Below the pieces are notes generated by a model. That model saw only the letters and a program-made list of their open reading frames with translations. It was not told the DNA's origin and did not search any database. From contig DAOVHI010000049.1 of NCBI GenBank assembly GCA_030671985.1, forward strand, positions 1 to 9,225: a stretch of DNA of 9,225 bases. Reading direction: 5' to 3'. The position numbers were made by a program, and so were the translations under genes. This DNA is from JAHJDO01 sp030671985 [NCBI: bacterium]. Its GTDB lineage: Bacteria; JAHJDO01. Positions 1-9,225 of this stretch are shown here, one piece after another (the stretch's first letter is position 1; the number at the start of each line of letters is the position of its first letter).

Positions 1-55
1 TATGGCTGTTCTCTATCTTGTCATGGGCAGCAAAACTCAGGAGGTGAGCGAATGA
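1..55 (+). CDS. pyrB: Aspartate carbamoyltransferase, C-terminal end only (partial)
   Basis: Reading from base 2, the frame gives 17 residues (MAVLYLVMGSKTQEVSE) and stops at TGA 53-55. A hydrophobic MAVLYL segment close to the C-terminus is typical of aspartate carbamoyltransferase catalytic chains, the enzyme that joins carbamoyl phosphate to aspartate in pyrimidine synthesis. pyrC follows directly, with its ATG sharing bases with this stop (ATGA), which is the usual pyrB-pyrC order. The body of the gene lies outside the window, so the assignment rests on these few residues and on context. Confidence 0.75.
   Translation, partial: MAVLYLVMGSKTQEVSE
39..46 (+). promoter_or_regulatory. Strong ribosome binding site for pyrC
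   Basis: AGGAGGTG lies inside the end of pyrB, five bases before the ATG at 52. It is a near-perfect Shine-Dalgarno sequence and fixes the pyrC start. Confidence 0.85.
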
Positions 56-1329
56 AACTACTCATAAAAAATGGAACCGTTATCGACCCATCCCAAAATA
101 TGGTGGAAAGAACAGACATATTTATAGAAAACAACAAGATATGCAAATTAGGTAAGAATATCAATGAGAAGGATTGTAAAATACTAAATGCCATGGGCAT
201 GATTGTTTCTCCCGGATTTATTGATATGCACGCTCATTTGAGAGAGCCCGGCAGAGAGGATGCTGAAACAATAGCTGCTGGAACAACATCTGCCGCAAAG
301 GGCGGATTTACATCGGTTTGCTGTATGCCAAACACAGAACCTGCTATAGATAATCAATCCGTTGTAAAATTTGTTTTAGAGAAAGCTAAAAAAGAGGGTA
401 AGGTCAATGTGTTTCCCATTGGCGCAATTACAAAGGCTCGAAAAGGAGCCGAACTTGCAGAAATTGGAGATATGAAGGATGCTGGAATAGTTGCTGTTTC
501 GGATGATGGTAATTGGGTAGAGAATGCCGCTCTCATGAGAAGAGCGCTTGAATATAGCGAGATGTTTAATATTTTAGTAATATCGCATTGCGAAGACAGG
601 TCTCTCTCAGAAAAAGGGGTGATGAACGAAGGTTATGCCTCAACTGTTTTAGGATTGGAAGGCATTCCAAGGGAATCGGAAGAAATCGCAGTTTTCAGAG
701 ATATAAGTCTAGCAAAGATGCTGAATGCCGGAATACATATTGCTCATGTATCAAGCAGAGGAACAGTAAAATTAATAAGAGAGGCAAAAAGCCGCAAAAT
801 AAAGGTCAGCTGTGAAGTAACGCCTAATCATTTCGCATTAACGGAACAAGCCGTTAAGGGCTATGATGCAAAGACAAAGGTTAACCCGCCGTTGAGAAGT
901 GAAGATGATATCAAAGCCGTAAAAAACGGGCTTGCTGACGGAACAATAGATGTTATAGCAACAGACCATGCTCCTCACACAGTAACAGAAAAAGAGTATG
1001 AATATAATAACGCTCCGTTCGGGATTGTCGGTTTTGAGACAGCAGTAGGGCTTGCTTTTACAGAACTTGTTCACAGCGGAGTTTTGTCATTATCACAGCT
1101 TATTGAAAAGCTCTCCTGCAATCCTGCGAAAATTCTTGGGTTTGAAACAAAAGGGACGCTGAAAATCGGCGCAGATGCAGACATAACAATAATAAATGAG
1201 AATAAGGAATGGACCGTAGATATAAACAAGTTTCTCTCAAAAAGCAAAAACTCACCGTATCACAATAGAAAATTAAAAGGCAAAGTAATAGCAACTATTG
1301 TTGGTGGGAAGATAGTTTGCAAAGATTGA
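52..1329 (+). CDS. pyrC: Dihydroorotase (type I, zinc metalloenzyme)
   Basis: This enzyme cyclises carbamoyl aspartate to dihydroorotate, the third step of UMP synthesis, in the cytoplasm. The 425-residue length fits bacterial type I dihydroorotases. The amidohydrolase metal ligands are all visible: H60 and H62 in DMHAHLREPG, D152 in SDDG, H179 in SHCED, H232 in IAHVSS and D305 in ATDHAPH. The pattern matches the two-zinc site of the Bacillus enzyme. R64 in HLRE and N94 in MPNT are the expected substrate contacts. The start follows a strong Shine-Dalgarno and overlaps the pyrB stop by four bases, which suggests translational coupling. pyrK begins three bases after the stop. All metal ligands are present, so the enzyme should be active. 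Confidence 0.97.
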   Translation: MKLLIKNGTVIDPSQNMVERTDIFIENNKICKLGKNINEKDCKILNAMGMIVSPGFIDMHAHLREPGREDAETIAAGTTSAAKGGFTSVCCMPNTEPAIDNQSVVKFVLEKAKKEGKVNVFPIGAITKARKGAELAEIGDMKDAGIVAVSDDGNWVENAALMRRALEYSEMFNILVISHCEDRSLSEKGVMNEGYASTVLGLEGIPRESEEIAVFRDISLAKMLNAGIHIAHVSSRGTVKLIREAKSRKIKVSCEVTPNHFALTEQAVKGYDAKTKVNPPLRSEDDIKAVKNGLADGTIDVIATDHAPHTVTEKEYEYNNAPFGIVGFETAVGLAFTELVHSGVLSLSQLIEKLSCNPAKILGFETKGTLKIGADADITIINENKEWTVDINKFLSKSKNSPYHNRKLKGKVIATIVGGKIVCKD

Positions 1330-1332
1330 TAA

Positions 1333-2124
1333 ATGAAAATTTTTAGTGTCAAAAAAGAAATAATAGAAAATAAAAAAATCTCTGCGGGTTGTTATAGGAT
1401 AACGTTTGAGTCGAGAAAAATAGCTTGCATGGCAAAGCCGGGGCAGTTCCTGCATATAAAATGCTCAGATACGTATGACCCGCTATTAAGAAGACCTATC
1501 AGCATTCATAGCGTAGAAAACAATGTTATTGAAATTCTTTATAAAGTAGTTGGAAGGGGAACAGGATTGTTATCTGAGAAGAGCTGCGGAGATTCGATAG
1601 ATGTTATGGGCCCATTAGGTAATGGTTTTGACTACCAGTCACTTGTCACTTGTCACCTGTCGCCGATTCTTGTTGGAGGAGGAATAGGAATTGCGCCATT
1701 ATATTTTCTTGCTCGGAAACTTGTTGAGAAATACTCAAATGTAACTGTTCTTATTGGCGCTGACGCTAAACACAACATTCTCTGCGTAGATAAGCTTAAA
1801 AAACTGGGCTGTAGAGTGAAAGTATCTACTAATGACGGGAGTACGGGAATAAACGGAACAGTTGTTAATCTACTAAAAAAAGAACTTAGCCCCGAAAATG
1901 TCAAATTAAAGATTTTTGCCTGCGGGCCTATTCCAATGCTGAAACAAATTAATAGACTGGTTTCCGTGTATAATGTTTCATCTCAAGTCTCATTGGAAAA
2001 ACGAATGGCATGTGGTATTGGAGCATGTATGGGATGCATAATAAAAGTAAAAAACGGTTATAAGCGGGTTTGTAAAGACGGTCCTGTTTTCGATATTAAA
2101 GAAGTTATTTGGGAGGATTTATGA
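1333..2124 (+). CDS. pyrK: Dihydroorotate dehydrogenase B, electron transfer subunit
   Basis: PyrK carries electrons from PyrD to NAD+ through FAD and a [2Fe-2S] cluster. The 263 residues show the family order: an N-terminal ferredoxin-reductase-like barrel with the FAD motif RRPISI (53-58), a nucleotide-binding domain with VGGGIGIAPL (114-123), and a C-terminal cluster site with C227, C232, C235 and C247 (MACGIGACMGC...C). Together these identify PyrK rather than another reductase. The ATG is only three bases after the pyrC stop and has no clear Shine-Dalgarno, so it is probably translated by coupling. The pyrD ATG overlaps its stop. The linker at residues 99-111 (DYQSLVTCHLSPI) is unusual because it is encoded by a 7-base tandem repeat at 1638-1661. 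No key residue is lost. Confidence 0.96.
   Translation: MKIFSVKKEIIENKKISAGCYRITFESRKIACMAKPGQFLHIKCSDTYDPLLRRPISIHSVENNVIEILYKVVGRGTGLLSEKSCGDSIDVMGPLGNGFDYQSLVTCHLSPILVGGGIGIAPLYFLARKLVEKYSNVTVLIGADAKHNILCVDKLKKLGCRVKVSTNDGSTGINGTVVNLLKKELSPENVKLKIFACGPIPMLKQINRLVSVYNVSSQVSLEKRMACGIGACMGCIIKVKNGYKRVCKDGPVFDIKEVIWEDL
1638..1661 (+). repeat. In-frame GTCACTT heptamer tandem repeat inside pyrK
   Basis: Three copies of a 7-base unit run head to tail: GTCACTT, GTCACTT, GTCACCT, then a final GTC. Since 7 is not a multiple of 3, each copy is read in a different frame, giving SLVTCHLS. The repeat fills the linker between the FAD and NAD domains of PyrK. The reverse complement of the same unit (GTGACAAGT) occurs again at 3869-3877, at the end of ispE. 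Confidence 0.85.
2111..2116 (+). promoter_or_regulatory. Ribosome binding site deciding the pyrD start
   Basis: GGGAGG lies four bases before the ATG at 2121. It favours that ATG over a possible TTG start 12 bases upstream at 2109, which would overlap the Shine-Dalgarno itself. Confidence 0.7.
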
Positions 2125-3029
2125 AACAGTTAAGTCTTGATGTAAACATTGCCGGGATAAAAATGAAAAATCCGGTAATGACGGCTTCCGGCACATTTGG
2201 ATACGGCTTGGAGTATTCGCAGCTAATAGATATAGAAAATTTTGGAGCAATCGTTACAAAAACTGTAACGCTGGAACCGAGGATTGGTAATCCCCAACCT
2301 AGAATTGTGGAGACAGCTAGTGGTATGCTGAATTCAATAGGACTGCAAAATCCCGGAGCAAAAATTTTTATTAAAGAGAAGTTACCAAAGCTAAAAGAGT
2401 ATGAGGTTCCGATCATAGCAAATATTTCAGGCAGAAATGAGACAGACTTTGTAAAACTTGCCGGACTACTGAAAGATATTGGATTGTCAGGTCTTGAGCT
2501 GAACATTTCCTGTCCAAATGTAGAACATTCAGGACTGTTTGCTCAGAATGCAGATACAACTTATAAACTCGTTAATAAGGTAAGAAAGGTTACAGGCTTG
2601 CCATTGATTGTTAAACTTACTCCCAATGTTACAGACGTTACACTAATTGCCGGAGCCGCAGAAGACGGGGGCGCAGATGCAATATCTCTAATCAATACTC
2701 TAATAGGTATGAGTATTGATATTCAAACAAAAAAACCTAAGCTGGCAAATGTCGTTGGCGGGCTGTCAGGGCCTGCAGTCAAACCGGTAGCGTTAAGAAT
2801 GGTTTATGAAGCATCTAAAAAAGTCAGTATTCCTGTAATTGGTATGGGTGGGATAGTGACTTCAGACGATGCTATTGAATTTTTACTCGCCGGAGCAAGC
2901 GCGGTTGCTCTTGGTACAGTAAATTTTGTTAATCCTAATACTTGTTGTGAGATTATAGACGGAATTAAAATATATATGAGAGATAACAAATTCAACAAAA
3001 TATCGGATATTACAGGACGGGTTAAATGA
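2121..3029 (+). CDS. pyrD: Dihydroorotate dehydrogenase B, catalytic subunit (class 1B)
   Basis: This FMN enzyme oxidises dihydroorotate to orotate and works as a PyrD2PyrK2 complex with the neighbouring pyrK product, using NAD+ as acceptor. From the ATG at 2121 it has 302 residues, normal for the class. Visible features are the N-terminal NPVMTASGTFG (17-27), K47 in TKTVT, N71-G79 (NSIGLQNPG) in the substrate region, the catalytic cysteine C131 in NISCPN, K165 in VKLTPNV and the FMN phosphate loop GMGGI (241-245). A catalytic Cys instead of Ser, plus the adjacent pyrK, places it in class 1B rather than the membrane-bound class 2. The start overlaps the pyrK stop (ATGA), and the stop overlaps the ispE start in the same way. 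Confidence 0.97.
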   Translation: MKQLSLDVNIAGIKMKNPVMTASGTFGYGLEYSQLIDIENFGAIVTKTVTLEPRIGNPQPRIVETASGMLNSIGLQNPGAKIFIKEKLPKLKEYEVPIIANISGRNETDFVKLAGLLKDIGLSGLELNISCPNVEHSGLFAQNADTTYKLVNKVRKVTGLPLIVKLTPNVTDVTLIAGAAEDGGADAISLINTLIGMSIDIQTKKPKLANVVGGLSGPAVKPVALRMVYEASKKVSIPVIGMGGIVTSDDAIEFLLAGASAVALGTVNFVNPNTCCEIIDGIKIYMRDNKFNKISDITGRVK

Positions 3030-3886
3030 GCAGTCTTTCTTTAAAGTCTCATGCGAAAGTCAATTTATTCTTGGAAGTATTATGGAAAAGAGATGACGGT
3101 TACCACGAAATAGAAAGCCTGATGCAAGAAATAAGTTTATGCGACAATATCTTGTTGGAAGACAGATTGGAAGGGATAACCATTCTTTGTCCAAATAAAG
3201 AAATCAGCATTCCGTCTGATCACAACAATCTGGCACACAAAGCGGCAAGACTGCTTATAACAAAGTTCAATATAAAAAAAGGAGTTTCCATTACAATTGA
3301 TAAGAAGATACCTGTCGGTGCCGGTCTGGGAGGCGGCAGCAGTAATGCAGCTTCAGTTCTTAAAGGATTAAATCAACTCTGGAATATCGGGCTAAAGAAT
3401 AGACAACTGCAGGAATTAGGGGCGGAAATAGGTTCTGATGTCCCGTTCTTCATTAATGGTAAAACTGCGCTGGTAAAAGGCAGGGGAGTAAAAATACATA
3501 CATGGATTACTGTGCCTAAAACATGGATTATTTTAGCTGTTCCGAATATAAGCGTTTCAACAAAATGGGCATATGGAAGGCTGGATAGAGAGTTGACAAA
3601 AAACATAAATAGTGCTAGATTGCCAACACTTGAGAAATTGCAGTTTAAGGGTATAGTGGATAATTTGTTCAACAGATTGGAGGGGGTGGTGCTTAAGGAA
3701 TATCCTATTATTGAGACCGTTAAGGAGAAAATGACAGCTTGTGGAGCAAGAGGTGCTTTAATGAGTGGAACGGGGTCTGCGGTTTTCGGTATAGCCTCAA
3801 GCAAAAATAAGGCTTATAAAATAGCCGAAAAAATTTCTAATGACCTAAAATCAGAAGTAGTTTGTTATGTGACAAGTAGTTGCTAA
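3026..3886 (+). CDS. ispE: 4-diphosphocytidyl-2-C-methyl-D-erythritol kinase
   Basis: IspE is a GHMP-family kinase that phosphorylates CDP-methylerythritol with ATP in the non-mevalonate (MEP) route to isoprenoids. The 286-residue length is typical. Recognisable parts are the N-terminal AKVNLFLEV (10-18, with K11), DGYHEIESLMQ (24-34), the glycine-rich ATP loop PVGAGLGGGSSNAA (96-109), the catalytic Asp region IGSDVPFF (135-142, D138) and the C-terminal GHMP motif SGTGSAVFG (247-255). Its ATG overlaps the pyrD stop by four bases with only a weak Shine-Dalgarno, so coupling with pyrD is likely. The last residues (VTSSC) are encoded by GTGACAAGT, the reverse complement of the repeat unit found in pyrK. 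spoVG follows after 33 bases. Confidence 0.96.
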   Translation: MSSLSLKSHAKVNLFLEVLWKRDDGYHEIESLMQEISLCDNILLEDRLEGITILCPNKEISIPSDHNNLAHKAARLLITKFNIKKGVSITIDKKIPVGAGLGGGSSNAASVLKGLNQLWNIGLKNRQLQELGAEIGSDVPFFINGKTALVKGRGVKIHTWITVPKTWIILAVPNISVSTKWAYGRLDRELTKNINSARLPTLEKLQFKGIVDNLFNRLEGVVLKEYPIIETVKEKMTACGARGALMSGTGSAVFGIASSKNKAYKIAEKISNDLKSEVVCYVTSSC

Positions 3887-3904
3887 AGTGATAAACAACA
3901 AATT

Positions 3905-3910
3905 AAGGAG
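3905..3910 (+). promoter_or_regulatory. Ribosome binding site of spoVG
   Basis: AAGGAG stands nine bases before the ATG at 3920 and supports that start. There is no clear terminator or promoter in the 33 bases after ispE, so spoVG is probably in the same transcript. Confidence 0.7.
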
Positions 3911-3919
3911 TAAATTACA

Positions 3920-4435
3920 ATGGAAATCACAGAGGTAAAAGTCAGACTAAGGGATAGAGAGGGAAGCAAACTAAAAGCATATGCAACTATTATTTTTGAC
4001 AATTCTTTTGTTGTTAGAGATTTAAAAGTAATTGATGGGAGAAAAGGATTGTTTGTGGCAATGCCGTCTCGGCAGGTAAGAGAGGCGTGTCCCGGCTGTC
4101 GTCATCGCAATTCTCTCAGAAGTAAATTTTGTAATCAGTGCGGCAAAGCTTTGGAATTTCAGAGTGCTCCAAGAAAAGAAGGGGAGGATAGAGTAGATGA
4201 GCATAGGGATGTGGCGCATCCAATAACTTCGGAAACAAGAGACTATCTACAAACAAAGGTATTAGAAGCTTATGAGGCAGAGAGGGCAGCGCTACCTCAG
4301 GAAGTTAAACCTGAGACTGAACCTGCGGTTGAACCGCCTATAGTCGCTGAATCCGGTGCTGAGCAGTCTGAAGTTGCTCCTGAACAGTCAATAGAGACAG
4401 AGCCCAACGCCGATCAAGTGGAGAAAACCGAATAA
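3920..4435 (+). CDS. spoVG: SpoVG-family regulator with inserted zinc ribbon and acidic tail
   Basis: SpoVG proteins are small nucleic-acid-binding regulators, usually about 85-100 residues; this one has 171. Residues 1-50 are classic SpoVG (MEITEVKVRL, FDNSFVVRDLKVIDG, KGLFVAMPS). The usual end of the domain (HRDVAHPITSETR, then a helix to about 122) resumes at residue 95. Between them, at 57-74, is a four-cysteine zinc ribbon: C57 and C60 in CPGC, and C71 and C74 in CNQC. Residues 125-171 form a low-complexity tail rich in Glu, Pro and Ala, probably disordered. The ribbon sits in the loop where ordinary SpoVG has only a few residues, so the fold can remain intact. It follows ispE, as in the Firmicutes ispE/spoVG region, and precedes two tRNA genes. 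Its regulatory target is unknown. Confidence 0.92.
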   Translation: MEITEVKVRLRDREGSKLKAYATIIFDNSFVVRDLKVIDGRKGLFVAMPSRQVREACPGCRHRNSLRSKFCNQCGKALEFQSAPRKEGEDRVDEHRDVAHPITSETRDYLQTKVLEAYEAERAALPQEVKPETEPAVEPPIVAESGAEQSEVAPEQSIETEPNADQVEKTE

Positions 4436-4458
4436 AAAATTAATAATAGCAATTTAAT

Positions 4459-4529
4459 TGCCCGGTGGTGTAATGGTAACACATCAGTTTTTGGTACTGA
4501 GATTCGAGGTTCGAGCCCTTGCCGGGCAA
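4459..4529 (+). tRNA. tRNA-Gln (anticodon TTG)
   Basis: The acceptor stem TGCCCGG (4459-4465) pairs with CCGGGCA (4522-4528). The D stem is GTG/CAC (4468-4470, 4480-4482), the anticodon stem is TCAGT/ACTGA with TTG at 4491-4493, and the T stem is CGAGG/CCTTG around loop TTCGAGC. The discriminator is A4529. The 3' CCA is not encoded (ACAT follows), so it must be added after transcription. It lies 23 bases after spoVG with no visible promoter and may be cotranscribed with it. Confidence 0.95.
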
Positions 4530-4541
4530 CATACAATATAT

Positions 4542-4618
<77 letters not shown>

Positions 4619-4652
4619 AGTTAACAACTTGATACACAAAGAGTTAAGGATA

Positions 4653-4687
4653 AGCTAGGAGAGTTTTTCTTCTAGCTCTTTTCTTTT
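4653..4687 (+). terminator. Rho-independent terminator after the tRNA genes
   Basis: AGCTAGGAGA (4653-4662) pairs with TCTTCTAGCT (4668-4677), a ten-pair stem with one G-T wobble and a five-base loop. A T-rich run CTTTTCTTTT follows. Its position 34 bases after the initiator tRNA fits the end of the pyr-ispE-spoVG-tRNA transcript. Confidence 0.7.
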
Positions 4688-4802
4688 AGAGTAACTATAG
4701 AGTAACTTGAGAGCCATCTTCCCCCTCGATATTAGGAAGGGATTAGTTGAGATGCAAAGAAAAAAGAATCCCGAAACAAGCAGAACTTGAATTTTGAAGA
4801 TA

Positions 4803-4828
4803 CCACGTCCGTAAGAGCGTGGAGTTTT
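4803..4828. terminator. Small hairpin after the RES gene; terminator or IS-end remnant
   Basis: CCACG (4803-4807) pairs with CGTGG (4818-4822) around a ten-base loop, and AGTTTTAT follows on the + strand. It lies 15 bases beyond the stop of the - strand RES gene and could end that transcript. The T run is weak in both directions. Its shape also recalls the subterminal hairpins of IS200/IS605 elements, but no transposase is present. Confidence 0.35.
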
Positions 4829-4836
4829 ATAGATAG

Positions 4837-5967
4837 TTATTTTTGTAATTCAAATGAGCACGAGACATTCGTTACCCTAAACAATTCCGTGTTTGGTTCA
4901 ATTCTGACAACACTAGGCTCAAACAAGGCGATATTCTTTCCTCCCGTGAAAAGAGAACTTGCATATAAGATACCATCGTAATTAGCATTCTTGATAACCT
5001 CAGCCAGGTATTGTGTTGGTACATATTCGATATCAGAATCGTCCTTTCGAATCGGTATAGACAATGCATGATCTAAACAAGAGAGTAAAGCGTTTTGTCT
5101 GATCACCGTGGAAAGCTTCTCTCCTTCACAGGCAAACGGGCTTGGGATTCTTGGCACTGAAGTGAGATCCGCAAGGCGAACAAAGCTTTTGATATGAAGA
5201 GTCGCTACAGTGACATATGCGCCCTTTTCAGGGCAAACTTCGCTTATCGCTGTAGCTTTTTCAAGAGCTGTATAAAGCACAGGAATGCCGAGAGCATTGA
5301 TGCGACCACTACGCGTCTTATTCGGAAGGGGTGCATTCATTAGTTCAGGTTCAAGAGGTTTAGGTATCCCTTCTTTGGGATTTATTCGAGCTCGGTAAAT
5401 TATACTTCCTGCAGAGAGAGGCATTTCAAGCACTGGCAGTAAAAGAGGTAACCAGTCTTTCGGATCAGCGATTGGAGTCAATCCCTTCGGCTTCAGTATA
5501 AATCTTCTGTCGTATTTGATATGTTGGCAGAATCCACTCCACTGTTCTTCTTCAGAGACATGGAAGAGACTCTTGTCTTTGGATGCCCATAGTTCATTGC
5601 TTGGCGCAGGCGGACATTTGTAATCATAGTGACCCGAGCCTATACGAATCTCATCGAGAAGGTCACATTGCTGATTGTACAAGTCCAATTTGTCATAGTT
5701 AAAAATGTCCCCCCAGTCATCCTGAATTGCTTGAGGTAACGAATCTCCCACATCAATCGCTTCTTTATTCATTCCACGATCATAATGCTCGCCCTCCTCG
5801 ACAGGCTCATATAACTCAAGAAGCTCAGCAAAATTCTCGTACAACTCGAAAGGGTTAATCGTGTAAATACTCTTAGATGCACAGAACTCACAATCTCCAA
5901 TTTTACCATCAGAGCGAATGCGCTTCTTCAAGTACCTATCAACAAAACAATTTTCGCAACATTTCAT
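4837..5967 (-). CDS. RES-domain protein with N-terminal zinc-finger/helical domain
   Basis: The C-terminal half (about 188-355 of 376) is a RES domain: IYRARI (190-195), SGRINALGIPVLYTALEKATAISEV (220-244), YVTVATL, and PTQYLAEVIKNANYDGILYASS (317-338) followed by GGKNIALF. RES proteins have an ADP-ribosyltransferase-like fold, and characterised toxin members degrade NAD+. The R-Y-E set is present here (R192, Y232, E243). Residues 1-29 carry CxxC pairs (C4/C7 and C26/C29), and an acidic helical region (about 36-110) follows, like the HEPN/RES N-terminal domain fused to some RES proteins. The usual upstream Xre-type antitoxin is missing, so it is not a standard Xre-RES pair. The start has only a weak Shine-Dalgarno. 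It runs divergently from the kinase gene, 293 bases away. NAD cleavage is inferred from the family. Confidence 0.85.
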   Translation of the reverse strand: MKCCENCFVDRYLKKRIRSDGKIGDCEFCASKSIYTINPFELYENFAELLELYEPVEEGEHYDRGMNKEAIDVGDSLPQAIQDDWGDIFNYDKLDLYNQQCDLLDEIRIGSGHYDYKCPPAPSNELWASKDKSLFHVSEEEQWSGFCQHIKYDRRFILKPKGLTPIADPKDWLPLLLPVLEMPLSAGSIIYRARINPKEGIPKPLEPELMNAPLPNKTRSGRINALGIPVLYTALEKATAISEVCPEKGAYVTVATLHIKSFVRLADLTSVPRIPSPFACEGEKLSTVIRQNALLSCLDHALSIPIRKDDSDIEYVPTQYLAEVIKNANYDGILYASSLFTGGKNIALFEPSVVRIEPNTELFRVTNVSCSFELQK

Positions 5968-6082: not shown

Positions 6083-6218
6083 TCATAACACTCCGCAATG
6101 CATTGATCTTCTATTATTACCATCAATACATATTTTGTCTATCATTTTTATTGAGGTTTTAAGCAATTTGAGCTATGGTAATATAGTAGTAGCAAACGTT
6201 CAATGGCTAATGTTAGGT
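6083..6218 (+). repeat. Imperfect palindrome ending in GTTAGGT; possible degenerate attC
   Basis: Nested paired blocks occur in the same order on both sides: TAACA (6086-6090) with TGTTA (6211-6215), CATTGA (6101-6106) with TCAATG (6200-6205), and CTATTATTACCAT (6111-6123) with ATGGTAATATAG (6175-6186, one unpaired T). The right end GTTAGGT (6212-6218) fits the attC consensus GTTRRRY, and the kinase ORF starts 48 bases after the cut point. Spacers are uneven (10 versus 5, and 4 versus 13), so it is either a diverged attC or a chance AT-rich palindrome. Confidence 0.4.
6151..6179 (+). promoter_or_regulatory. Possible promoter for the kinase gene
   Basis: TTGAGG (6151-6156), a 17-base spacer and TATGGT (6174-6179) form a fair sigma70-like promoter upstream of the kinase ATG at 6261. 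It overlaps the imperfect palindrome, and the -10 box is not ideal. Confidence 0.3.
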
Positions 6219-6260: not shown

Positions 6261-7751
6261 ATGGCAGTACATATTATTAGGTTGCATAAAGGAGAATGGG
6301 AATATGATGATGCTTGTCCTCTTGGAAAAGCTGGAGGATTTGGAGAGGTATTCCATGGTCGTGGTGCGGACGGAGATGTCGCTGTAAAACGATTGAAACT
6401 TAATGCAAATCAGGTCGCCCATAGAGAGCTGACAATTGGGCGGCAATTGATGCAGAGGTCGCTATCTCACGTTGTCCAGATCATTGATGCCGGCCAAGAT
6501 TCTGAATCTGATCGGTATTTTCTCGTAATGCCTGTGTGTAAGTTCAGTCTTCAAGACAAGATTGATGAAGCGAATGGTGCTATTGATATGAAAACTGCTA
6601 GTGTAGCCATTTCTGCCATTATCGTTGGGCTCTCCGAAGTTAAAGACATAACACACCGTGATCTAAAACCTGCGAACGTATTATTTCATGATGGCAAGTG
6701 GAAAATTGCTGACTTTGGTATAGCGAAATTCATCGAAGACTCGACATCGGCTGAAACTCTCCGAAATAGTTTAACTCCAAAATATGCAGCACCAGAGCAG
6801 TGGCAAGGGGACAGGCCAACTACTGCAACAGACATCTACGCTCTTGGCTGCGTTATTCACGCTCTATTTGTTGGTCAGCCACCATTTTTAGGTTCGATCG
6901 ATGATATTCGAGAAAGCCATTTACATTCAACACCAGCCCCAATAACTGTTTTGCCTCCACGTTTTTCAGCATTTGTTTCCCACATGCTAAGGAAACTACC
7001 AAATGCAAGGCCAACGCTTGAGCGATGCGCACGAGTATTATTAGAACTCAATACCGCCCAGAAAGACAATAATGTAATACATTCATCAATTGATGAGGCT
7101 GCTAAACAAGTGGAAGAAATAGAAGCAAGAGAGGAAGCAGAACGTCAGGCAGCTACTACTTTATATAATGAGCGTAACGCACTGTTTAAAGACGCAGAAA
7201 CTGAATTAATGGCAATAAAAGATCGTCTTTTTTCAAAGATTAGTGACTCATCTGAAAGTGTAAAAATTAATTATAAAGGACTTCAGTTTGGTAAAGCTGA
7301 ACTTGGGTTTATGTCAAAACCTGCGAGGCTTGTCTCCTCATATGTTCGAGGGGAAAAGCCATATCAATACACAGGATGGGACGTTCTTGGATGGTCAATA
7401 ATTGATGTGACTTGTTGCAGCAGTCAAATAAATTCCTACACGTGGTCTGCTTCACTTCTATTTGCCGATCGTAAGGATGGGAACGGATTCCGATGGTACG
7501 AGGTTTCATTTTGGATTCATGCGCAATCAAGAAGCAGGAAAAACGAACCGTTCGGCTTGAAAGGCTATAAAGCTGATATTGACTTCGCGCTAGGGAACAT
7601 AACCCATTTTGTAAACGTTGCTTATGGGCCATTCCCAATCGATGGAGAGGATGAAGAAAGTTTCATCTCAAGATGGACCGAACTGGTTGCAAAAGCAGCG
7701 ATTGGCCAACTTACTAGGCCAAGTAGTATGCCCATTCGTGATTTTGGTTAA
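6261..7751 (+). CDS. Hanks-type Ser/Thr protein kinase with unknown C-terminal domain
   Basis: The 496-residue protein begins with a complete kinase domain (about 15-265). The ATP loop is LGKAGGFGEVFHG (21-33), the ATP lysine is K43 in AVKR, the helix-C partner is E56 in HRELTIG, the catalytic loop is HRDLKPANV (132-140, with D134 and N139), the metal site is DFG (151-153), and APE is at 177-179. DIYALG (191-196) and R250 follow. All catalytic residues are present, so it should be active. Residues about 277-325 are a charged, Ala/Glu-rich probable coiled coil. Residues about 330-496 form a Trp/Tyr-rich domain I do not recognise. There is no signal peptide or membrane span, unlike PknB/PrkC, so it is cytoplasmic. 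A TAAGGGA Shine-Dalgarno stands eight bases before the ATG. Its substrate is unknown, and it may be a cassette gene. Confidence 0.9.
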   Translation: MAVHIIRLHKGEWEYDDACPLGKAGGFGEVFHGRGADGDVAVKRLKLNANQVAHRELTIGRQLMQRSLSHVVQIIDAGQDSESDRYFLVMPVCKFSLQDKIDEANGAIDMKTASVAISAIIVGLSEVKDITHRDLKPANVLFHDGKWKIADFGIAKFIEDSTSAETLRNSLTPKYAAPEQWQGDRPTTATDIYALGCVIHALFVGQPPFLGSIDDIRESHLHSTPAPITVLPPRFSAFVSHMLRKLPNARPTLERCARVLLELNTAQKDNNVIHSSIDEAAKQVEEIEAREEAERQAATTLYNERNALFKDAETELMAIKDRLFSKISDSSESVKINYKGLQFGKAELGFMSKPARLVSSYVRGEKPYQYTGWDVLGWSIIDVTCCSSQINSYTWSASLLFADRKDGNGFRWYEVSFWIHAQSRSRKNEPFGLKGYKADIDFALGNITHFVNVAYGPFPIDGEDEESFISRWTELVAKAAIGQLTRPSSMPIRDFG

Positions 7752-7756
7752 ATAAT

Positions 7757-7779
7757 AAAAGGGGACAGCGACCTCTTTT
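7757..7779 (+). terminator. Terminator-like hairpin after the kinase gene
   Basis: AAAAGGGG (7757-7764) pairs with CCTCTTTT (7772-7779), eight pairs with one G-T wobble and a seven-base loop, starting five bases after the kinase stop. The T run is part of the stem. The GGGGACAGCGACC core resembles a short dispersed element I associate with REP-type transposases in environmental genomes, so it may be a mobile remnant instead. Confidence 0.45.
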
Positions 7780-7792
7780 GTTAAATCTCCGA

Positions 7793-7954
7793 AATAATAA
7801 AACTCATTATTATACAGCTACCAACTTAATAATAGGCATAGCTATGCAAACCGGAAAAGCCAAGCTCGTTTTTCGAATATATTTCTTGATATTTTACACA
7901 ATTGTCTGCTATCGTAACAAAACGAGGGTAGCGGCTCAATGATATATGTTATGC
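7793..7954 (+). repeat. Long imperfect palindrome ending in GTTATGC; candidate attC of kinase cassette
   Basis: The right arm is nearly continuous, AAAACGAG (7919-7926) then GGTAGC (7927-7932), then AATGA (7938-7942) and GTTATGC (7948-7954). The left arm carries the complements in matching order: TCATT (7804-7808), GCTACC (7817-7822) and CTCGTTTT (7865-7872). A 42-base insertion on the left contains a perfect 12-base palindrome GCATAGCTATGC (7836-7847). The outer left box reads ATAAT where attC should have ATAAC, so the site is degenerate. The GNAT gene begins 45 bases after the would-be cut point at 7948/7949. Confidence 0.45.
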
Positions 7955-7982
7955 TCCTAAAACGATAAGTGCAGTAATAATT

Positions 7983-7992
7983 AAAGGTGAGG
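7983..7992 (+). promoter_or_regulatory. Ribosome binding site of the GNAT gene
   Basis: AAAGGTGAGG lies just before the ATG at 7994. The AAAGGTG part is at a suitable distance and supports this start. Confidence 0.65.
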
Positions 7993-7993
7993 T

Positions 7994-8530
7994 ATGAATT
8001 ACCAAGTTCTTGGCAGTAAAAACAAAAAAGAAATCACAGAGCTTTTCACTTCTGTATTCACCTCATCTGAGGGCAAAGAGGAAGGAAAATTGATTGGCAA
8101 ACTTTCCTCAGAGTTGGCGTCAACCATCGACAATGAAGAAACAATCTGTTTCGGCTTATATGAAAATGAATCACTCATTGGCTCTATTTTCTTTACTCGC
8201 CTTCAGTTTAAAGTGCCTATTCAGGTTTACATGCTCGCTCCAGTTGCAGTAAGCACTAAATATCAGGGAAAAGGCATCGGACAGGCACTAATCAATTATG
8301 GGCTTAATGAGCTTAAAAAAAGCTCTGTAAATGTTGCTATCACATATGGCGACCCATCCTTTTATTCAAAGGTGGGATTTCAGGTGCTTTCAGAAAATGT
8401 CATTCAGGCTCCGCTAACGCTATCAATGCCAGTAGGCTGGCTGGGTCAATCTTTATCGGGAGAGTCAATTCCAGCCATCAATGAACGCCCCACATGTGTT
8501 AAGGAATTCAATGATCCTGTTTATTGGTAA
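7994..8530 (+). CDS. GNAT-family N-acetyltransferase
   Basis: The 178-residue protein has the GNAT fold that transfers an acyl group from acetyl-CoA to an amine. The acetyl-CoA loop is in motif A, VAVSTKYQGKGIGQALI (84-100), with Q91-G92-K93-G94-I95-G96 matching the Q/RxxGxG/A signature. Motif B is YGDPSFYSKVGF (118-129), where the Tyr is commonly the general acid. The N-terminal part (1-75) supplies the substrate side, and the C-terminal segment (about 140-178, ending DPVYW) resembles that of predicted YhbS-like acetyltransferases. The substrate cannot be read from the sequence. A good Shine-Dalgarno precedes the ATG. The gene sits alone in a cassette-like unit followed by an attC, which points to horizontal transfer. 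Confidence 0.92.
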   Translation: MNYQVLGSKNKKEITELFTSVFTSSEGKEEGKLIGKLSSELASTIDNEETICFGLYENESLIGSIFFTRLQFKVPIQVYMLAPVAVSTKYQGKGIGQALINYGLNELKKSSVNVAITYGDPSFYSKVGFQVLSENVIQAPLTLSMPVGWLGQSLSGESIPAINERPTCVKEFNDPVYW

Positions 8531-8538
8531 TTACAAGA

Positions 8539-8625
8539 ACATAACAATCACATGCACTCGGACTGCAAAAAGCGTTGCTCGTTCCTCGCTCTGCTTTATG
8601 CTGCCGGTGATGTGAGGCGTTATGC
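8539..8625 (+). repeat. attC: Integron attC recombination site
   Basis: The 87-base palindrome starts eight bases after the GNAT stop. The outer box CATAAC (8540-8545) pairs with GTTATG (8619-8624). In the inner arm, TCACAT (8548-8553), CAC (8555-8557) and CGG (8559-8561) pair with the uninterrupted CCGGTGATGTGA (8604-8615). This leaves G8554 and T8558 unpaired, the strand-selecting extrahelical bases expected of attC. CTGCAAAAAGC (8563-8573) then pairs at 9 of 11 positions with GCTTTATGCTG (8593-8603). A variable loop of about 19 bases lies in the centre. The end GTTATGC carries the G^TT cut point at 8619/8620. Only the known attC architecture explains these features together. Confidence 0.9.
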
Positions 8626-8633
8626 CTTTTTGT

Positions 8634-8637
8634 GGAG
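8634..8637 (+). promoter_or_regulatory. Ribosome binding site favouring the GTG start of the small protein
   Basis: GGAG lies seven bases before GTG 8645. It supports this start over the in-frame ATG at 8552, which is inside the attC. Confidence 0.5.
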
Positions 8638-8644
8638 CGTAATT

Positions 8645-8764
8645 GTGAATGATGCGATAAGGGGAGCAGTAGTAGCGGTAGTATCAAGCCTACTAGTCGC
8701 GATACTGTTTGCATACGTTTTTCGAATTCCCATTCCACTTTGCGGCATGCTTGGCCCTTGGTAG
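8645..8764 (+). CDS. 39-residue single-span membrane peptide (hypothetical)
   Basis: Reading from GTG 8645 to TAG 8762-8764 gives a 39-residue peptide beginning MNDAIRGAVVAVVSSLLVAI. Residues about 7-26 form one hydrophobic membrane helix. A short tail with FRIPIP (26-31) and GMLGPW follows. I do not recognise a family. The start was chosen because a GGAG stands seven bases upstream and because the codon lies 25 bases after the attC cut point, where a cassette gene is expected. The frame stays open upstream to 8552 only because it runs through the attC. No second attC was found after the stop, so the right edge of a cassette here is undefined. It is real only if translated; the Ala/Val/Leu-rich helix and Pro motif look protein-like. 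Confidence 0.55.
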   Translation: MNDAIRGAVVAVVSSLLVAILFAYVFRIPIPLCGMLGPW

Positions 8765-8979: not shown

Positions 8980-9225
8980 ATGAAACCCATCGTATTAGCA
9001 ATAAACATATGTGATGATATTATTAGAGATGAAGTTAGCAAAAAAATGTCATTGATAGGGCTTTTTAATCGCATACAATCCTCGTCATTTCCTGCAACTC
9101 ATTCTTCCTTACATGTATACGTGAGTTTAACAAACGGACATAAGAAATATAAAGGGGAATTGCGTTTCGTAAATGAGAGCGACGATAACGTGATTTTCAA
9201 AACAAATGCCGATGTTCCATTGCAA
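8980..9225 (+). CDS. DUF6941-like protein, N-terminal part (runs off window)
   Basis: The ATG at 8980 opens a frame of 82 codons that continues past the window end. The sequence starts MKPIVLAINICDDIIRDEVS, continues KKMSLIGLFNRI (21-32) and has LHVYVSLTNGHKKYKGEL (44-61). This resembles the small uncharacterised DUF6941 family, whose members start with a similar hydrophobic strand, a KxSLIGLFNRI-like turn and a beta-rich body. No function is known to me. AAGG (8969-8972) is a suitable Shine-Dalgarno seven bases upstream, partly inside a small AACCT/AGGTT hairpin (8958-8974). It has its own promoter, so it is probably a separate unit from the cassette-like genes before it. Confidence 0.7.
   Translation, partial: MKPIVLAINICDDIIRDEVSKKMSLIGLFNRIQSSSFPATHSSLHVYVSLTNGHKKYKGELRFVNESDDNVIFKTNADVPLQ

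What the first reader, a model, noticed from the sequence alone, without database searches (positions are those of the whole stretch)
8539..8625. A well-formed integron attC site next to a housekeeping operon
The site has paired outer boxes, a 12-bp inner arm with exactly two one-sided unpaired bases (G8554, T8558), a 9/11 matching stem and a GTTATGC cut site. These are the features IntI reads on the folded bottom strand. The site lies eight bases after a GNAT stop codon. The host block looks like an uncultured low-GC lineage, where integron cassettes are less expected than in marine Gammaproteobacteria.
Basis: partly seen in the sequence, partly recalled or inferred. Interest (0 to 1): 0.8.

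Follow-up and report, generated by a model that had tools for sequence, protein, structure and literature searches.

The report
Lone integron cassette at attI-like site
A genuine mobile integron gene cassette sits in the chromosome of an uncultured bacterial lineage in which no integron recombinase was found, and the lineage carries scattered landing-site-like sequences with different genes behind them, as if an integron had been spread over the chromosome.

Summary
The attC is real. A covariance model trained on 16 attCs from other genomes (window excluded) gives one hit in the window, exactly 8539-8625 on the bottom strand, 81.6 bits. It ends a cassette (7949-8619) whose GNAT gene has close relatives in many bacteria, several with an attC behind them. 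No intI above the curated cut-off was found in this MAG or its four genus mates. The left part of the contig is native.

New: the cassette's left edge is the end of a 195-bp repeat; a second copy in the same MAG ends at the same G|TT before a different gene with its own attC. A related 74-bp module recurs in all five genus genomes and in none of 284 others. Three orthologous sites hold different genes between the same flanks, though only one of these breaks exactly at G|TT. I read them as dispersed attI-like sites filled by an integrase acting in trans or since lost. Integrase and reaction are inferred; 9 of 19 attC hits lack such a site, and most modules show no attC.

The parts
8539..8625 (-). 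attC site, read on the bottom strand; crossover G8619|T8620
   Evidence: CM hit 81.6 and 84.6 bits; fold z -3.96; 86-87% identical attCs in integrons
7949..8619 (+). the gene cassette in linear form
   Evidence: GTTATGC at 7948 and 8619; shared cassette head in GNAT relatives, by eye; left repeat ends here
7994..8530 (+). GNAT acetyltransferase gene, 178 aa, the cassette cargo
   Evidence: Pfam GNAT families; 45 relatives
7757..7948 (+). attI-like element (second type) with promoter-like hexamers TTGATA 7886 / TATCGT 7915; crossover G7948|T7949
   Evidence: 91.8% identical over 195 bases to G000:C143, homology ends at the same GTT; promoter-like match 9 of 12
6146..6214 (+). copy of the 74-bp genus module, ending in GTT before the kinase gene; promoter-like hexamers seen by eye only
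   Evidence: nhmmer E 4.1e-16; genus-wide BLASTN. Its hexamers do not reach the threshold of the promoter scan
6261..7751 (+). protein kinase gene behind the module; no attC found behind it
   Evidence: Pfam Pkinase 1.2e-35; only one CM hit in the window
4837..5967 (-). RES-domain gene, accessory
   Evidence: Pfam RES 2.4e-16
8620..8764 (+). DNA right of the attC; possible start of a next cassette with a 39-codon frame from GTG 8645
   Evidence: sequence only; no second attC before the contig end
8980..9225 (+). start of a DUF6941 gene, cut by the contig end
   Evidence: Pfam DUF6941 1e-11
1..4618 (+). native core block: pyrC, pyrK-type, pyrD, ispE-type, spoVG genes, tRNA-Gln, tRNA-Met (gene names partly from recall)
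   Evidence: Pfam, tRNAs, 82-86% DNA identity to genus mates

Best explanation
8539-8625 is the attC of a mobile integron cassette carrying a GNAT acetyltransferase. The cassette lies behind an attI-like element (7757-7948); the left junction is G7948|T7949. Such attI-like elements are scattered through the chromosomes of this genus and hold different genes in different species. Most likely mechanism: an integron integrase not resident in these genomes (brought by a mobile element, or since lost) recombined folded bottom-strand attCs of circular cassettes with double-stranded G|TT sites in these elements; the inserted gene is then expressed from the element's promoter, and attCs decay when no integrase is present. 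Shown: attC structure and homology, cassette edges, the repeated left element ending at G|TT, different genes at orthologous sites, no IntI above the cut-off. Inferred: integrase in trans, promoter activity, attI function, decay of attCs, and how the elements spread.
For: attC by CM without the window in training and by homology to attCs in integrons. GNAT relatives with attC just behind the stop. 195-bp left repeat on G000:C143 ends at the same GTT before another gene and attC. 74-bp module in all five genus genomes, in 5 of 289 genomes; core motif 30 hits in 5 genus genomes, 1 in 40 others. With a matrix built without the attC loci, 10 of 19 attC loci have a site scoring 14.7 or more upstream on the same strand, 0 of 19 on the opposite strand. 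Nine loci besides the window show site, gene, attC in a row. Three orthologous site pairs with different genes between matching flanks. No IntI over cut-off in five genomes; known IntIs score 402 and 508 bits against a cut-off of 265.
Against: 9 of 19 attC hits have no attI-like site upstream. Most modules have no attC behind their gene. The GNAT's own site scores only 8.6 on the matrix, within reach of chance (5 of 168 reversed 3-kb windows reach 9.7 with the full matrix, highest 16.6; 2 of 246 unrelated ones, highest 19.5). Several attC hits are weak: G000:C56 E 0.68, G000:C143 E 0.068. Homology breaks exactly at GTT(A) in only two of five orthologous pairs; in the others it ends inside the module. 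Some copies are promoter halves, and one stands before a purB-like gene without GTT. No integrase was found, and no reaction was tested.
Confidence: 0.6

Rival explanations
1. An ordinary lone cassette inserted by a passing integrase at non-classical attG sites; the repeat upstream is only a promoter repeat in which the site happened to lie.
For: attG insertion into genomes is published (seen in citing passages only). Nine of 19 attC hits have no module upstream. No resident IntI over cut-off.
Against: Two copies of a 195-bp element end at the same base before different cassettes, and in the own MAG all six attC loci have such a site, the window's own being weak. attG targets are not expected to share 18-195 conserved bases on the left.
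Confidence: 0.2
2. Remains of a normal chromosomal integron with one intI, broken up by rearrangement or by poor assembly; intI is missing from the MAGs.
For: MAGs lose mobile and repeated DNA; this contig ends 600 bases after the attC. Short arrays exist: two attC hits in tandem in G003:C43, and G004:C86 has a second gene directly behind an attC.
Against: No IntI over cut-off in five MAGs estimated 62-96% complete; the six attC hits of the own MAG are on six contigs, and sites lie between core genes at orthologous places.
Confidence: 0.15
3. The modules are promoters of a lineage-specific regulon or a small repeat element; they have nothing to do with recombination, and their nearness to attCs reflects shared hot spots for gene gain.
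For: Promoter-half copies and a copy before a purB-like gene without GTT; most modules have no attC behind; repeats of other kinds stand before many copies.
Against: Of 36 copies that reach the profile end, 34 read G, 36 T and 35 T there and A follows in 25, then sequences diverge (choosing copies that reach the end favours this). Genes start 0-11 nt behind the site in five of nine attC loci. Different genes at orthologous sites.
Confidence: 0.2
4. The right part of the contig is a chimeric or foreign piece binned by mistake, and the cassette belongs to another organism.
For: Cassette and attC resemble those of other phyla; reads are not available.
Against: One contig with the native operon; a genus-only module at 6146-6214; a near-copy of 7757-7950 on another contig of the MAG.
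Confidence: 0.04

Closest known systems
Integron gene cassette with attC (class 1 and other mobile integrons)
   Same: Gene plus attC, G|TT edges, 86-87% identical attC in Providencia and pALTS31 integrons
   Different: No intI in the genome over cut-off, and no canonical attI beside intI
Single attC without integrase, and CALIN (IntegronFinder classes, PMC9024848, passages seen; the name SALIN is recalled)
   Same: attC without intI
   Different: Here lone cassettes share a left element; the published classes say nothing about the left side in the passages seen
Integrons in archaeal MAGs (PMC9668308, passages seen)
   Same: Cassettes in uncultured lineages, mostly without IntI
   Different: That study counted clusters of at least two attCs and left out singletons; attI sites reported there are next to intI
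attG insertion sites (Loot et al. 2024, not held; seen through citing passages)
   Same: Cassettes inserted outside integrons
   Different: Sites here share 18-195 conserved bases and recur, which attG sites are not expected to do (recalled)
attI with Pc promoter, e.g. V. cholerae superintegron (PMC3948777, abstract start in a listing)
   Same: Promoter-like sequence upstream of a G|TT junction and first cassette
   Different: Many copies per chromosome and no intI beside them

Membership tests
attC site | Paired outer boxes with G|TT and inner stem with one-sided unpaired bases | tested here: met
attC site | At the 3' end of a cassette gene | tested here: met
   eight bases after the GNAT stop
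attC site | Recombined by IntI on the bottom strand | not testable with these tools
   needs a cell assay
Complete integron | intI gene in the genome | tested here: not met
   no TIGR02249 hit over 265 bits in five genomes; controls 402 and 508 bits
CALIN | At least two attCs within 4 kb, no intI | tested here: not met
   one attC in the 9225-base contig; the contig ends 600 bases later
attI site | Left neighbour of the first cassette, ending at G|TT | tested here: met
   window 7948 and G000:C143; 34 of 36 full-reaching modules have G there
attI site | Next to intI | tested here: not met
   no intI over cut-off
attI site | Promoter driving the cassettes | tested here: inconclusive
   consensus match at 7886-7915; the 74-bp module's hexamers are by eye and below the scan threshold
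attI site | Bound and recombined by IntI | not testable with these tools
   needs an assay
attG site | Target with little conservation beyond the cut-site motif (recalled) | tested here: not met
   74-bp and 195-bp conserved left sides

The most novel reading that the evidence does not exclude
A distributed integron: in this isolated bacterial lineage the usual single attI with a long array is replaced by many chromosomal attI-like landing sites, each with its own promoter and one or few cassettes between core genes, served by an integrase supplied in trans or by another tyrosine recombinase of the cell. Captured genes would be expressed at once instead of being stored silent.
Probability: 0.32. 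Interest if true: 0.86.

Novelty: new variant of a known kind. Interest (0 to 1): 0.64.

Why it matters
Lone attCs without an integrase are easily dropped as noise or remnants. Here many have a common left partner, so their origin can be tested: which site was used, whether a promoter comes with it, and who supplied the integrase. The genus also offers sites where different species hold different genes between the same core genes, which is what is needed to measure cassette gain outside classical integrons.

Tried and rejected
GTTATGC counts as evidence: not above chance. Rfam: two tRNAs only, no attC-type match. Phage records: no match to the attC. Viral contigs: no exact match to the module core. 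Plasmid tblastn for the DUF6941 fragment: none. Alignment A2 of 12 attCs was worse than A1 and not used. A first inverted-box scan printed far too many candidates to be useful. The modules as attCs: some copies hold an inverted pair TAACATTAA/TTAATGTTA by eye, no inner stem seen, not tested further. Hidden IntI among own recombinases: of the six recombinases scanned (four own, one each of G002 and G003), one own is XerC over cut-off, one is Xer-like below the cut-offs, two are short frames at contig ends that fit Xer models better, the G003 one is XerD; the G002 one reaches 193 bits to TIGR02249 (cut-off 265), lacks profile positions 181-243 and lies beside a frame that looks like an IS91-type transposase (by eye). 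The other rows were not scanned one by one.

Literature: searches (listings) showed no paper on several dispersed attI sites in one genome; the library lacks most subscription journals, so this is weak evidence of absence.

Full report
The site. Window 8539-8625 was read base by base. Folded alone, the 87 nt reach -18.5 kcal/mol on the bottom strand, z -3.96, 0 of 200 shuffles as stable; the top strand gives -19.1, so energy does not decide the strand. With flanks the z-score is -2.14. G8554 and T8558 are unpaired on one side; A8562 is too. I built a covariance model (R1) from 16 attCs of loci L008, L009, L011, L039, L043, L045, L046, L048, L049, L051, L060 and L062, without the window. It gives one hit in the window, 8539-8625 on the minus strand, 81.6 bits, E 7.5e-19; a realigned model R2 gives 84.6 bits.

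Relatives of the site and of the gene. In plasmids the attC is found at 86-87% identity in five Providencia records and pALTS31, at 91% over 68 bases in Nitrosococcus and 77% in Desulfosarcina. On p16Pre36-NDM it follows an erythromycin-esterase-family gene, on pALTS31 a hypothetical protein; both integrons have an annotated intI. The GNAT has 45 relatives in genome contigs; the best 18 are 68-80% identical. I printed flanks of 37 of the 45: several share a cassette head of the type GTTATGTTCCAAA...ATG and an attC-like start AAGAACATAACAA right after the stop (by eye). Of 23 GNAT loci searched with R1, 7 have a hit within 30 nt of the GNAT stop at E<0.03 and L040 at 0.17; five of the seven were in the training set, so only L053, L062 and L040 are independent. 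The window cassette thus runs from T7949 to G8619.

The host. The window is a whole contig (9225 bases) of a 1.25-Mb MAG in 152 contigs, 92% complete. Near kin in the held set are four genus mates; the next are only of the same domain. The left part aligns at 82-86% in the same order: 1-4620 with G004, 1-4174 with G001 (contig end), 1-1316 and 1332-4700 with G003, 1330-4726 with the stretch fetched from G002. After tRNA-Met the genomes differ: hrcA-, grpE- and dnaK-like genes in G004, restriction-type genes in G002 (names by eye). The right part of the window is accessory, yet it belongs to the lineage: it holds a module found only in this genus and an element repeated on another contig of the MAG.

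No integrase found. TIGR02249 gives hits in all five genomes, as in all 14 control genomes, none over 265 bits. Known IntIs reach 402 and 508 bits; the own candidates scanned fit Xer models better.

More attCs in the genus. R1 finds 17 hits at E<=1 in the five genomes: five in the own MAG, four in G002, two in G004, six in G003, none in the 62%-complete G001. R2 with stricter filters adds G000:C143; in the same run 10 of 54 unrelated genomes have a hit at E<=0.1 and 44 none. Several are plain attCs just behind stop codons. Some are weak by score: in the own MAG C120 E 1.4e-4, C133 0.008, C104 0.048, C56 0.68, C143 0.068. The six own hits are on six contigs.

The left edge. No attC stands left of the GNAT cassette. 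Instead 7757-7950 is 91.8% identical over 195 bases to a stretch of G000:C143; the homology stops at the same GTT, and C143 goes on with other DNA, a 97-codon frame 206 nt on, and an attC. Left of the kinase gene, 6146-6214 is a copy of a 74-bp module. BLASTN at E<=1 lists 63 rows: 10, 8, 17, 15 and 13 in G000 to G004, 50 of them at E<=1e-3. An HMM finds 56 matches at E<=1 in fetched loci, some partial. Of 36 matches that reach profile position 73, 34 have G, 36 T and 35 T there and A follows in 25, then the sequences diverge; picking matches that reach the end favours this result. The consensus is found at E<=0.001 in 5 of 289 genomes, all five of this genus. The core GTTCAATRATTAATGTT with up to one mismatch gives 30 hits in the five genus genomes, one in 40 others, none for the reversed pattern.

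Link between module and attC. I scored the 17 hits plus G000:C143 and G003:C34. With a 30-base matrix rebuilt from 27 sites outside the attC loci, 10 of 19 have a site of 14.7 or more within 3 kb upstream on the same strand; on the opposite strand 0 of 19 do, the highest being 5.4. With the full matrix 5 of 168 reversed 3-kb windows and 2 of 246 windows of unrelated loci reach 9.7, the highest 16.6 and 19.5, so the three lowest positives (14.7, 16.6, 17.3) are not beyond chance by score alone. In the window the strong site (30.0) is the kinase's; the GNAT's own scores 8.6 and rests on the 195-bp repeat and its place at the cassette edge. Nine loci besides the window show site, gene, attC in a row: in five the gene starts 0-11 nt after the site; the stop lies within 31 nt of the attC except in L104, where frame and attC overlap, and L163, 338 nt. 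Nine attC hits have no such site: G002:C120 (promoter half only), C44, C96, C81; G004:C14; G003:C48, both of C43, C71.

Different genes at the same site. Pair A: G000:C124 and G004:C7 match at 85% over 1974 bases through a plsY-like gene and most of the module, hold different frames for about 1 kb, then match at 87% over 2031 bases from just before a gpsA-like gene. Pair B: G001:C34 and G004:C19 likewise match on both sides. Pair C: G000:C56 and G004:C86 match through a coaX-like gene up to GTTA; G000 then has one 130-aa gene with a weak attC, G004 about 3.9 kb with an attC and a further site; both resume before a leuB-like gene. Two pairs match on the left only: G003:C34 with G000:C122 (module through GTTA) and G000:C76 with G003:C55 (gene names by eye). 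The break is exactly at GTT(A) in pair C and in G003:C34/G000:C122; in A it is a few bases earlier, and the G000 copy has no intact GTT; in B it lies inside the module, G004 having only the promoter half; in the last pair it is inside the module. In G003 the C133 unit is missing altogether, module included, with some flanking DNA, and mcsA joins the next gene.

Limits. Over 40 module loci R2 gives two weak hits, one placed as expected (G003:C34), and R1 one that is not. One module stands before a purB-like gene without GTT. Of 20 cargo proteins scanned 10 have no Pfam match at E<=1e-4. The promoter scan lists the hexamers at 7886-7915 but not those of the 74-bp module.

Reading. Attc and cassette are secure by sequence. 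The left elements look like attI (G|TT end, cassettes behind, a promoter-like sequence) but fail one defining feature, an intI beside them, so I call them attI-like and propose an integrase acting in trans or lost. After checking pair junctions and weak hits against the calls I lowered the novel-case odds from 0.35 to 0.32 and interest from 0.66 to 0.64.

Noticed in passing
L043 (Candidatus Hodarchaeota MAG contig JAEOTC010000142.1), 1878-2486: A GNAT 74% identical to the window's lies with an attC behind it and a second, weaker attC hit (E 0.44) before it, on a 3.9-kb contig binned as an Asgard archaeon.
   Followed up: partly
L111 (G004:C14) 3044-4967: A PtuA-PtuB pair (Septu defence) has an attC hit just behind ptuB, so a defence pair may travel as a cassette.
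   Followed up: partly
L113-L117 (mcsA loci of five genus genomes): The DNA just upstream of mcsA holds different accessory genes in G000, G001, G002 and G004 and none in G003.
   Followed up: partly
L110 (G003:C32) 1812-3588: A 547-aa gene that looks like hydroxylamine reductase (by eye) lies between an attI-like site and an attC hit.
   Followed up: no
L187 (G000:C143), right of 2076: Just right of the attC the sequence resembles the 3' end of a tRNA or tmRNA gene (by eye).
   Followed up: no
G005, G009, G031, G053, G058 (loci L190-L200): Unrelated genomes with strong or clustered attC hits, e.g. three in G005:C39; L198 (G031) has an IntI-like stretch at its contig end.
   Followed up: no
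upstream of many modules, e.g. L143, L178, L163, L103: Repeat-like or terminator-like sequences often stand directly before the module (by eye); they may bear on how modules spread.
   Followed up: no
L158 (G002:C33) 1571-1996 and window 8980-9225: A frame resembling the window's DUF6941 gene (by eye) stands behind a module half in G002, beside a gene followed by the left half of an attC.
   Followed up: no
window 6261-7748: The kinase behind the module resembles kinases of phage-defence models (mads_6, PD-T4-6) in its kinase domain; no full system is seen.
   Followed up: partly
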